In this document: piece after piece, positions 6,690 through 11,167 of the stretch | Layout of the letters: each line of letters begins with the position of its first letter | Numbering within the stretch: the first letter of the stretch is position 1 | DNA from: Calidithermus chliarophilus DSM 9957 | GTDB taxonomy: Bacteria > Deinococcota > Deinococci > Deinococcales > Thermaceae | Length of the DNA stretch: 32,002 bases | Reading direction: 5' to 3' | Assembly (NCBI RefSeq): GCF_000430045.1 | Contig: NZ_KE387023.1 | Coordinates: forward strand, 2,422,752 to 2,454,753 | Program-made: the position numbers and the translations under genes | Notes under the pieces: generated by a model | Seen by the model: the letters and a program-made list of their open reading frames with translations, nothing else | Told to the model about the DNA's origin: nothing | Database searches by the model: none

Positions 6690-6763
6690 GGCCAGTCGTT
6701 CGTAGCCGGCGATGCCTCGTCTGTCGCTCGAGGCCGAAGGTTACCCGCAGCCCAGGGCTTGAC
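6654..6763 (+). repeat. Imperfect direct duplication of the 3' end of the acyl-CoA dehydrogenase gene
   Basis: The last 36 bases of the gene (6654-6689, starting CTCGAGGCCGAGGG) recur at 6727-6763 (starting CTCGAGGCCGAAGG) with about five differences in 37 positions. The offset is 73 bp, so the second copy is out of frame. This looks like a remnant of a local duplication. Confidence 0.75.
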
Positions 6764-6781
6764 CCTCGATGCGGCAAATGC

Positions 6782-6810
6782 CCCCGCAGAATCGCGGGGT
6801 TTTGTATTTT
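6782..6810 (+). terminator. Intrinsic terminator after the acyl-CoA dehydrogenase
   Basis: CCCCGC (6782-6787) pairs with GCGGGG (6794-6799) around AGAATC, followed directly by TTTTGTATTTT. It ends only 5 bp before the ATG of the NERD gene, so the T run may double as part of that gene's promoter. Confidence 0.75.
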
Positions 6811-6815
6811 GGGGC

Positions 6816-7466
6816 ATGTCCATCAAGCACGGTACAGCCGGAAAGACTTTGCGCAACAAGCTTCTTGCCTTAGCGGTGATTCTCCTCGTCGTTGGGATCG
6901 GGGGATACCTCCTCATCCGGGTGCTCGTGCCTTTCCTTGCCCCGGCGGCTCCGCTGGTGGCCCTGTTCCTCGTCCTGCGGGTACTCAGCAGCAAAGAGAT
7001 GGCCAAGGCCGTCCGGGCCGTAGGCAAGGGCTACGTCGGGGAGGTCACGGTCGGCAGGAGCCTCGAGCAACTCCCCACCGGCTGGCGCGTCTTTCACGAC
7101 CTGGACTTGGGCGGGGAGAACGTGGACCATTTAGTGATCGGACCCGCCGGGGTGTTCAACGTGGAGGTCAAGAACTACAGCGGCAAGGTGATCGCGACGC
7201 CGAAGGGGTTGTACAACAAGGGCAGACGCCAGGACGAGGTGGTCAAGCAGGCCTGGCGGCAGTCACACAAGCTCAAGGAGATTCTGGGGGCAGAAGTAAA
7301 GCCGATTCTGGTGTTCGTGGGCGATCGGCTCGATGGGGACCGGGCCGGAAAACTCCCGGTCAAACGCCCTGAGGAACTGGTGCGCCATCTCTCGAGCCTG
7401 CCGAAGGTCTGGGAGTATGGCGACTTCATCGCTGCGGTCAAGAAGGCCGAAGGGTTGGTCAAGTGA
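6816..7466 (+). CDS. Membrane-anchored NERD-domain protein (putative nuclease)
   Basis: The product is 216 residues. Two hydrophobic segments (about 15-36 and 38-57) anchor the N-terminus. A NERD (nuclease-related) domain follows, with GEVTVGRSLEQLP, NVDHLVIGPAGVFNVEVKN and conserved positions E75, D104, E117 and K119. The family shares the PD-(D/E)XK fold; the substrate is unknown. ATG 6816 is preferred to an in-frame start at 6759, because the earlier one would run through the terminator hairpin. The 3' end overlaps the convergent Uma2 gene by 8 bp. Confidence 0.85.
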   Translation: MSIKHGTAGKTLRNKLLALAVILLVVGIGGYLLIRVLVPFLAPAAPLVALFLVLRVLSSKEMAKAVRAVGKGYVGEVTVGRSLEQLPTGWRVFHDLDLGGENVDHLVIGPAGVFNVEVKNYSGKVIATPKGLYNKGRRQDEVVKQAWRQSHKLKEILGAEVKPILVFVGDRLDGDRAGKLPVKRPEELVRHLSSLPKVWEYGDFIAAVKKAEGLVK

Positions 7467-8013
7467 CGGCCCGGTAAATCTCCTCGAGCCCCACCCTGAG
7501 CTCGAGGCAGGGCAACTCGAGGACGTCGCTGCCCTCGAGGGTTTCGTAGCGCCAGGTGCCGTCCTCCAGGCGGCGGTAAACCTCGACCAGCTTCTGGTCT
7601 TGAGAAACCAGGACGTAGGCTTTGAGGCTGGGGATGGTCTTGTAATTGTGCAGTTTCTCGCCCCGGTCGATGGCTTCCGTCGATTCTGACAATACCTCGA
7701 TAATCCAGCAGGGTAATTGCTTGAACCGAGCCCTGCCGTCTGATTCTTCACAGGTGAGAAACAGGTCGGGGTAATAACCTTTTCCGCCGGGTGTCTGTAC
7801 GATCATGTCGTTGATGAATAGCTCGCACCCGGAGGCCTCCGCGGCGTCGTAGATCAAGCGGAGGAGCCGGCTGCAGATGCGGTTGTGATCTGCGGTTCCG
7901 CCTGCCATGGCGAATAGATAGCCGTCCACGAGCTCATGACGCACCTGTGATCGCGCTTCCAGCTCGAGGTATTCCTCGAAAGTGGCTTGCCCGACGGGGT
8001 TTTGGCGGGCCAT
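7459..8013 (-). CDS. Uma2-family (DUF820) restriction-endonuclease-like protein
   Basis: The product is 184 residues. The Uma2 signature is visible in order: FEEYLELE, RHELVDGYL (E27), YYPDLFLT (D83) and WIIEVLSEST (E106), the acidic residues of a PD-(D/E)XK nuclease fold. Uma2 genes are multiplied in many cyanobacteria and Thermales and their function is not settled. ATG 8013 was chosen because a TATACT lies 6 nt upstream, which predicts a leaderless mRNA. In-frame upstream starts would overlap the divergent gene. It converges on the NERD gene with an 8-bp overlap. Confidence 0.9.
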   Translation of the reverse strand: MARQNPVGQATFEEYLELEARSQVRHELVDGYLFAMAGGTADHNRICSRLLRLIYDAAEASGCELFINDMIVQTPGGKGYYPDLFLTCEESDGRARFKQLPCWIIEVLSESTEAIDRGEKLHNYKTIPSLKAYVLVSQDQKLVEVYRRLEDGTWRYETLEGSDVLELPCLELRVGLEEIYRAVT

Positions 8014-8019
8014 GGCTCG

Positions 8020-8049
8020 AGTATACAGGCGGCAGCGGTTGCTTAGACT
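8020..8049. promoter_or_regulatory. Compact divergent promoters for the Uma2 and LDH-like genes
   Basis: TATACT on the minus strand (8020-8025) lies 6 nt before ATG 8013. TAGACT on the plus strand (8044-8049) lies 7 nt before ATG 8057. The start codons of the two genes are only 43 bp apart, so the -10 of each occupies the -35 region of the other and the two probably compete. Confidence 0.65.
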
Positions 8050-8056
8050 GGTGAGC

Positions 8057-8977
8057 ATGAGCAAAGTCGCCATCGTCGGTGCCGGTCTGGTCGGGGCTAC
8101 CACCGCTCACACCCTGGCGTTGCGGGGGTCGTGCGAGGAGATCGTGCTGCTGGACGTGGACCGGGACAAGGCCCAGGCCCAGGCGGCCGACGTGGCCGCG
8201 GCCGCTACGCTCGACCGGGGGGTGCGGGTCTACAGCGGGAGCTACGCCCAGGTCAGGGGCGCCGACGTGGTGGTGCTGGCGGCGGGCCTGCGCCAGAAGG
8301 GGGGCCTGAGCCGTGCGGAGCTGATCAGCAGCAACACGCTGATCTACCGCGAGGTCATCCCGCAGGTGCTCGAGGCCGCCCCCGGCGCGGTGCTCTTGGT
8401 GGCCACCCAGCCGGTGGACTCCATGACCGAGTACGTGTACCGGCTGCTCGAGGGCTGCGACGTGAGCCGGGTGCTGGGGGTGGGGACGGTGCTCGAGACC
8501 ATGCAACTGCGGGCGGCGGTGGCCGCGCACCTGGGGGTCTCGCCCGAGCACGTCAACGGTTACGTGGTCGGCGAGGAGGGCGACTCGGCGCTGGTGGTGT
8601 GGTCGAACCTCAACGTGGCCGGGCTGCCCATCACCGAGTTCGCCGCCCAGCGCGGGGTGCCCTGGACGGCCCGCGACCAGTCCGCCATCACCGACCGGGT
8701 GCAGCGCTCCAACCGGCGGGTGGTGGAGGGTAAGGGGGCCATCTCCTACGGGGTGGGGGCCGCCATCGCCCGGGTGGTCGAGGCCATCCTCTACGGCGCG
8801 AACGTCGTCCTGACCGTCAGCTCGCGCAACTCCGAGTTCGGGGTCGCCCTGTCCCTGCCGTGCATCGTGGGGGCGGGCGGGGTCGTGGAAACCCTGGACC
8901 TGCCCTATTCGCGGGAGGAGCGGTTCAAGCTCGAGGTGCTGTGCAACAGCCTGAGGAACACCCTCGAGCACATCTAG
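8057..8977 (+). CDS. Lactate/malate dehydrogenase-like protein with replaced catalytic residues
   Basis: The product is 306 residues, the normal LDH length. The NAD-binding motif GAGLVG and D33 (LLDVDRD) are intact, and the substrate-binding Arg is kept (R86 in LSRAEL). The catalytic set is changed: VATNPVD has become VATQPVD (Q118), the Asp and Arg of TVLDSARFR have become E147 and Q150 (TVLETMQLR), and the proton-relay His of GEHGDS has become Glu (GEEGDS, E174). The fold and probably NAD binding remain, but LDH or MDH activity as known is unlikely. It is not a decayed gene: the frame is intact with normal codon use. Leaderless start at ATG 8057. Confidence 0.88.
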   Translation: MSKVAIVGAGLVGATTAHTLALRGSCEEIVLLDVDRDKAQAQAADVAAAATLDRGVRVYSGSYAQVRGADVVVLAAGLRQKGGLSRAELISSNTLIYREVIPQVLEAAPGAVLLVATQPVDSMTEYVYRLLEGCDVSRVLGVGTVLETMQLRAAVAAHLGVSPEHVNGYVVGEEGDSALVVWSNLNVAGLPITEFAAQRGVPWTARDQSAITDRVQRSNRRVVEGKGAISYGVGAAIARVVEAILYGANVVLTVSSRNSEFGVALSLPCIVGAGGVVETLDLPYSREERFKLEVLCNSLRNTLEHI

Positions 8978-10696: not shown

Positions 10697-11158
10697 ATGA
10701 AACGATTCGCAATATTCATGGCTTTAGGCGCGCTGCTGGCCGGGTTGGCGGTGGCGCAGTACCGCTTCCAGAACACCGGCCGGATCAACCGGATCCTCAC
10801 GCTGACCAGCCAGCAATTGGACCTGGCTGACGCCGAGGGGAGTTATCCGCTGGCGGTGTTTATTGATAAGCTGGACCGCAAGGACGCGAGCCGCAGCTAC
10901 TCGCGGAAACTGTCGAAGGGCCTGATCTACACCATCGAGGTCATCGGGGAAGGGGGTAAGGGCATCACCGACGCCGACCTGTACGTGCGCGACTCGAAGG
11001 GTTTGGTCAGCGTACGCGACGAGGGACTCTCGAACATCGCGAGGGTGGTGATCATGCCCAAGGCCGACGACACGTATACTTTCACGGCCTCGGCAGCCAG
11101 CTTCGGTTCCGCCCAGGACGGCTTCTTCTCGCTGGTGATCTCGGCGGCGGCCAGGTAG
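10697..11158 (+). CDS. Secreted protein of unknown function
   Basis: The product is 153 residues with a signal peptide ending LAVAQ (about residue 21). The mature part is a single predicted beta-rich domain with the pattern YTIEVIGEGGKGITDADLYV and DDTYTFTASA. This is reminiscent of pre-peptidase C-terminal-like beta-sandwich domains, but I would not assign a family. ATG 10697 has GGAGGT 8 nt upstream. The dihydrouridine synthase frame continues in the same reading frame directly after its stop, and that gene's Shine-Dalgarno overlaps the stop codon here, so the two are co-transcribed. Confidence 0.85.
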   Translation: MKRFAIFMALGALLAGLAVAQYRFQNTGRINRILTLTSQQLDLADAEGSYPLAVFIDKLDRKDASRSYSRKLSKGLIYTIEVIGEGGKGITDADLYVRDSKGLVSVRDEGLSNIARVVIMPKADDTYTFTASAASFGSAQDGFFSLVISAAAR

Positions 11159-11167
11159 GAGGTAAAA

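What the first reader, a model, noticed from the sequence alone, without database searches (positions are those of the whole stretch)
8057..8977. LDH-fold protein with all four catalytic positions rewritten
Compared with the LDH signature motifs, Asn of VATNPVD is Gln (Q118), Asp of TVLD is Glu (E147), Arg of DSAR is Gln (Q150) and the catalytic His of GEHGDS is Glu (E174), while the glycine-rich NAD site, D33 and the substrate Arg (R86) are kept. Each change is to a related polar residue in an otherwise well-kept protein, so this looks like a new function, such as another NAD-dependent reaction or a ligand sensor, and not decay. It shares a tight divergent promoter region with a Uma2 gene.
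Basis: partly seen in the sequence, partly recalled or inferred. Interest (0 to 1): 0.66.

Follow-up and report, generated by a model that had tools for sequence, protein, structure and literature searches.

The report
LDH-like protein with rebuilt active site
This gene makes a protein built like lactate dehydrogenase whose catalytic residues have all been replaced; seven related genes in six other bacterial genomes keep the same kind of replacements, so it is probably a maintained NAD-binding protein with a new job, as yet unknown, and not a broken enzyme.

Summary
Window 8057-8977 (+) encodes a complete 306-aa LDH-fold protein in which the four catalytic positions of LDH/MDH (N140, D168, R171, H195) read Q118, E147, Q150, E174. 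The protein belongs to a distinct clade of 8 genes in 7 Deinococcota genomes (Calidithermus, two Meiothermus MAGs, two other families), with 98-100% support. All 8 have Q at 140, E/Q at 168 and 195, no Arg at 171, and a new invariant Arg at position 101. All 33 canonical LDH/MDH sequences compared keep N/D/R/H. The NAD signature (GxGxxG, Asp33) is invariant. dN/dS is about 0.10-0.13 between close relatives, so this is not decay. Six of the seven genomes have no canonical LDH hit, which argues against an LDH partner subunit. The Uma2 and acyl-CoA dehydrogenase neighbours are incidental. Best explanation: an NAD(H)-binding pseudo-dehydrogenase (ligand sensor or scaffold) that cannot do LDH chemistry. 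Main rival: a dehydrogenase with new chemistry. NAD binding and activity were not measured. Verdict: real, a new variant of a known kind, moderately interesting, function not determined.

The parts
8057..8977 (+). LDH-superfamily protein with rewritten active site, 306 aa
8078..8095 (+). codons of G8-A-G-L-V-G13, the glycine-rich NAD motif, invariant glycines in all 8 members
8153..8155 (+). D33 codon, the NAD ribose aspartate, invariant
8291..8293 (+). R79 codon (LDH position 101), Arg in all 8 clade members, in 1 of 28 LDHs
8408..8410 (+). Q118 codon CAG (LDH Asn140), Gln in 8/8, Asn in 33/33 canonical
8480..8482 (+). V142 codon GTG (LDH Ser163), Val in 7/8
8495..8497 (+). E147 codon GAG (LDH Asp168), Glu/Gln in 8/8
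8504..8506 (+). Q150 codon CAA (LDH Arg171), never Arg in the clade
8576..8578 (+). E174 codon GAG (LDH catalytic His195), Glu/Gln in 8/8
8043..8056 (+). TTAGACTGGTGAGC upstream element: TAGACTGG (a candidate -10 box) is identical in all four Thermaceae members; the spacing to ATG is shortened here
   Evidence: function inferred

Best explanation
A neofunctionalised paralogue of a deinococcal L-lactate dehydrogenase. It keeps the LDH fold and the NAD-binding half of the site but has replaced the proton relay (His195-Asp168), the carboxylate clamp (Arg171), the carbonyl contact (Asn140) and Ser163. It therefore cannot reduce or oxidise 2-oxo/2-hydroxy acids by the LDH/MDH mechanism. Most likely it is an NAD(H)-binding pseudo-dehydrogenase: the dinucleotide and a small, not strongly anionic ligand sit in the remodelled Gln/Glu pocket, and binding changes loop closure or assembly to signal to a partner. 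Shown by sequence: the clade, the residue changes, purifying selection. Inferred: NAD binding, loss of LDH activity, the sensor/scaffold role; the partner is unknown.
For: Eight genes form one clade with 98/100 and 100/100 support, also without the longest branch. Their profile scores are 448-514 bits against 330 or less for every other match in about 790 genome searches with the profile. The four catalytic positions are changed in 8/8 and kept in 33/33 canonical sequences. G8, G10, G13, D33 and G77 are invariant. Of 63 columns conserved in LDHs, first-shell active-site columns are kept in 1/14 and others in 26/49, p=0.002, so change is concentrated in the pocket. dN/dS is 0.127 and 0.102 for two close pairs. 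Glu and Gln interchange at both the His195 and Asp168 positions, which argues against a general acid/base there. The literature supports loss of chemistry: in B. burgdorferi LDH, changing Thr146, Arg154 or His178 (positions 163, 171, 195 by that paper's own Arg156/His171 = 173/188 offset, PMC11980376) reduced or abolished activity. Even the divergent HicDH clade keeps R109, D168, R171 and H195 (PMC4109310). Fold: an AlphaFold model matches T. thermophilus LDH, TM 0.82-0.88.
Against: NAD binding was not measured, and S163V/H195E alter the nicotinamide end of the site. No partner gene or conserved operon was found that a sensor would act through. A new catalytic mechanism using E174/E147, of which at least one is Glu in every member, is not excluded. 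The AlphaFold model is of low confidence exactly in the active site (144-148, 168-184, 219-228). R86 and Q80 are kept in the four Thermaceae members and G056, which could mean a substrate is still processed there.
Confidence: 0.5

Rival explanations
1. A new NAD-dependent oxidoreductase: the remodelled pocket (R79, Q118, E147, Q150, E174) accepts a neutral or cationic substrate (such as an amine, alcohol or polyol) and hydride transfer uses a different acid/base, for example Glu174 or Glu147.
For: Cofactor signature invariant; pocket residues conserved in a new pattern (Q118 and R79 in 8/8); strong purifying selection; at least one Glu at 147/174 in every member.
Against: E/Q interchange at both positions; S163 replaced by Val; R109 and Q102 lost in three members; no consistent metabolic neighbours.
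Confidence: 0.35
2. A decaying LDH copy drifting towards a pseudogene.
For: The clade evolves faster than canonical LDHs (deep members have end branches of 1.2-2.5 changes per site against about 0.1-0.8); it is patchy (4 of 50 Thermaceae genomes); position 171 varies.
Against: All 8 frames are open at full length; dN/dS 0.10-0.13; Q118 needs two base changes from the AAC codon of the genome's own LDH, yet Gln is found in 8/8.
Confidence: 0.07
3. A regulatory subunit that assembles with a canonical LDH of the same cell and modulates it.
For: G000 also encodes a canonical LDH (L002). The interface residues that bind fructose bisphosphate in other LDHs are largely kept (R173 in 7/8, H188 in 6/8).
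Against: The other six genomes carrying the gene show no canonical LDH at E<=1e-10; H188 is Asn in the window protein.
Confidence: 0.05
4. Still an LDH or MDH despite the substitutions.
For: Q102 and R109 are kept in the Thermaceae members; it would explain the absence of another LDH in six genomes.
Against: Loss of His195, Asp168, Arg171, Asn140, Ser163 and Thr246 together; mutants at three of these positions are crippled in B. burgdorferi LDH.
Confidence: 0.03

Closest known systems
Bacterial NAD-dependent L-lactate dehydrogenase (TIGR01771), nearest solved: D. radiodurans 2v6b, T. thermophilus 2v6m/2e37
   Same: Fold, length, GxGxxG, Asp for NAD ribose, 41-47% identity over the full length; R173 of the effector site.
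   Different: N140Q, S163V, D168E, R171Q, H195E, T246I; the TIGR01771 score of 255.6 is below its curated cut-off of 303.55.
LDH-like malate dehydrogenase
   Same: Same superfamily and NAD site.
   Different: MDHs keep N/D/R/H and have Arg102 (5/5 here); this protein has Gln102 and a new Arg at 101.
Hydroxyisocaproate dehydrogenase (HicDH) clade
   Same: An LDH-superfamily branch with changed specificity.
   Different: HicDHs keep R109, D168, R171 and H195 (PMC4109310); this clade loses the last three in all members.
UEVLD (UEV3) LDH-like domain of animals
   Same: An LDH-fold domain in a protein not known as a metabolic LDH (PMC12513931, and own knowledge).
   Different: Fused to a ubiquitin E2-variant domain; its active-site residues were not compared here.

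Membership tests
L-lactate dehydrogenase (TIGR01771) | Score above the curated equivalog cut-off | tested here: not met
   255.6 against 303.55 bits
L-lactate dehydrogenase (TIGR01771) | Catalytic His195 with Asp168 | tested here: not met
   E174 and E147; E/Q in 8/8 clade members
L-lactate dehydrogenase (TIGR01771) | Arg171 carboxylate clamp | tested here: not met
   Q150; never Arg in the clade
L-lactate dehydrogenase (TIGR01771) | Gln102 and Arg109 in the mobile loop | tested here: met
   Q80, R86 in the window protein; lost in 3 of 8 relatives
L-lactate dehydrogenase (TIGR01771) | Lactate/pyruvate turnover | not testable with these tools
   needs an assay
Malate dehydrogenase | Arg102 with His195/Asp168/Arg171 | tested here: not met
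   Gln102; triad lost
LDH/MDH superfamily (Pfam Ldh_1_N, Ldh_1_C) | Both domains above gathering score | tested here: met
   102.9 and 75.1 bits against 27 and 22.6; TM 0.82-0.88 to T. thermophilus LDH
NAD-binding Rossmann protein | GxGxxG and acidic residue after beta2 | tested here: met
   G8, G10, G13, D33 invariant in 8/8; binding itself not measured
FBP-responsive bacterial LDH | Arg173 and His188 effector pair | tested here: inconclusive
   R152 kept but N167 in the window protein; both kept in most relatives

The most novel reading that the evidence does not exclude
A deinococcal LDH copy became a dedicated NADH (or NADH plus metabolite) sensor or a dehydrogenase with a Glu/Gln-based active site, a use of the LDH fold not described in bacteria to my knowledge.
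Probability: 0.35. Interest if true: 0.7.

Novelty: new variant of a known kind. Interest (0 to 1): 0.45.

Why it matters
LDH/MDH is a textbook superfamily for how specificity evolves, and its characterised members keep the same catalytic set. A natural clade that swapped the whole set while keeping the NAD signature shows a second way the fold can be used. It also warns annotators: a full-length LDH match is easily labelled lactate dehydrogenase although lactate chemistry is very unlikely.

Tried and rejected
1) Uma2 partnership: rejected. There are 13 Uma2 places in the genome (12 above the curated cut-off), and the copy beside the C. roseus orthologue is decayed. 2) Acyl-CoA dehydrogenase/APH-kinase (ACAD10/11-like) operon link seen beside the Meiothermus genes: rejected. 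The kinase is present in many Thermaceae without this gene and shows no match in the two Calidithermus genomes that have it. 3) LDH partner subunit: six of seven genomes lack a canonical LDH hit. 4) Mobile-element or viral carriage: no match in viral contigs with the protein; plasmid tblastn gave only hits below 60% identity, and the four fetched keep N/D/R/H. 5) AlphaFold with 4 sequences failed (pLDDT 53); with 5 sequences 76, active site still poor. 6) No paper found that joins LDH with pseudoenzyme and catalytic histidine; searches for Ser163 and S163L gave nothing relevant. 7) Promoter scan found no consensus site at 8014-8056. 9) Phylum searches centred on two other genomes held only 3 genomes each and show nothing.

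Full report
OBSERVATION. The ORF at 8057-8977 (+) is complete (306 aa) and LDH-like over its whole length (Pfam Ldh_1_N and Ldh_1_C; best solved relatives D. radiodurans and T. thermophilus LDH). In conventional LDH numbering the window residues are Q80=102, R86=109, Q118=140, V142=163, E147=168, Q150=171, R152=173, N167=188, E174=195, I229=246. The protein also lacks Ser163 and Thr246. It scores 255.6 bits against NCBIfam TIGR01771 (L-LDH), below the curated cut-off of 303.55.

GENOME CONTEXT. The same genome (4.69 Mb) carries a separate canonical LDH at C7:456830 with NPVD, LDTAR and GEHGDS. The close relative L003 is Calidithermus roseus at 88%; Meiothermus MAGs L004/L005 are at 72%.

A CLADE. 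Searching the 111 held Deinococcota genomes gave eight genes in seven genomes with the rewritten site: two Calidithermus, two Meiothermus MAGs, G056, G052 (two copies) and G055. In trees with canonical LDHs the eight are one side of a branch with 98/100 and 100/100 support, and remain so without the longest branch. A profile of the eight scores its members 448-514 bits, and nothing else in 390 genomes (relatives plus a spread of other phyla), or in 398 genomes of another large phylum, exceeds 330 bits. The genome-contig scan, which can only find close relatives of the query, found three. A wider distribution is therefore not excluded.

RESIDUES. Tallies: N140 is Q in 8/8; D168 is E6/Q2; R171 is Q5/T/V/L; H195 is E5/Q3; S163 is V7/T1; T246 is kept in 1/8. 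All 28 LDHs and 5 MDHs have N, D, R, H. A new Arg at position 101 is invariant in the clade and present in 1 of 28 LDHs. G8, G10, G13, D33 and G77 are invariant. R109 and Q102 are kept in the Thermaceae members and G056 only. Of 63 columns at least 95% conserved in LDHs, the first-shell columns listed in the eLife 2014 study (PMC4109310; mapped here by alignment) are kept in 1 of 14, all others in 26 of 49 (p=0.002). Change is thus concentrated on the substrate side, not on the cofactor signature or the rest of the fold.

SELECTION. dN/dS (Nei-Gojobori) is 0.127 for the Calidithermus pair, 0.102 for the Meiothermus pair, 0.27 for the two G052 copies. All frames are intact. Asn to Gln at 140 needs two base changes from AAC of the genome's own LDH to CAG.

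CONSEQUENCE. In B. burgdorferi LDH, site-directed changes at Thr146, Arg154 and His178 reduced or abolished activity (PMC11980376). Its Arg156/His171 equal 173/188, so these are 163, 171 and 195, all changed in the window protein. Loss of LDH/MDH chemistry is therefore a strong inference. Because Glu and Gln interchange at both former proton-relay positions, a conserved general acid/base is unlikely, which tilts me towards a binding protein over a new enzyme. But at least one of the two is Glu in every member, so the enzyme reading stays open at about one in three.

NEIGHBOURS. In the window the gene is divergent from Uma2 (43 bp) and convergent with DUF58 and MoxR ATPase genes. Uma2 has 13 places in the genome, 12 of them above the curated cut-off, and is a remnant in C. 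roseus. In Meiothermus the neighbours are two acyl-CoA dehydrogenases and an APH kinase; the kinase is common in Thermaceae lacking this gene and without a match in Calidithermus. In G056 the neighbours include an Fe-S protein and a methylmalonyl-CoA mutase. No neighbour is shared across the clade. The four Thermaceae genes share TAGACTGG upstream, a plausible -10 element (inference; the generic promoter scan does not flag it).

MODEL.

VERDICT.

Noticed in passing
window 7462-8013 (-): Uma2 gene of lower GC3 (0.76) than its neighbours (about 0.95); 13 Uma2 places in the genome; a decayed copy sits at the same place in C. roseus (L035 about 10980-11160).
   Followed up: partly
window 8043-8056: The conserved TAGACTGG box lies 5 bases before ATG here, while relatives have 17-20 bases with an AGGAG/GGGAG-like site in between, so the window gene may have become leaderless.
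   Followed up: partly
L036 7718-9637: A phage integrase and an Abi_C protein lie close downstream of the Meiothermus orthologue, suggesting an island boundary.
   Followed up: no
L039 and L040 (G052): Two divergent rewritten copies in one genome; L040 also lacks about three residues near 221-224.
   Followed up: no
L036 3044-5302, L037 2672-4950: Acyl-CoA dehydrogenase plus APH kinase pair resembling split ACAD10/11 (4-hydroxyacyl-CoA) enzymes, common in Meiothermus.
   Followed up: partly
window 7459-7466: The NERD-domain gene (6759-7466, +) and the Uma2 gene (-) overlap tail to tail by 8 bases.
   Followed up: no
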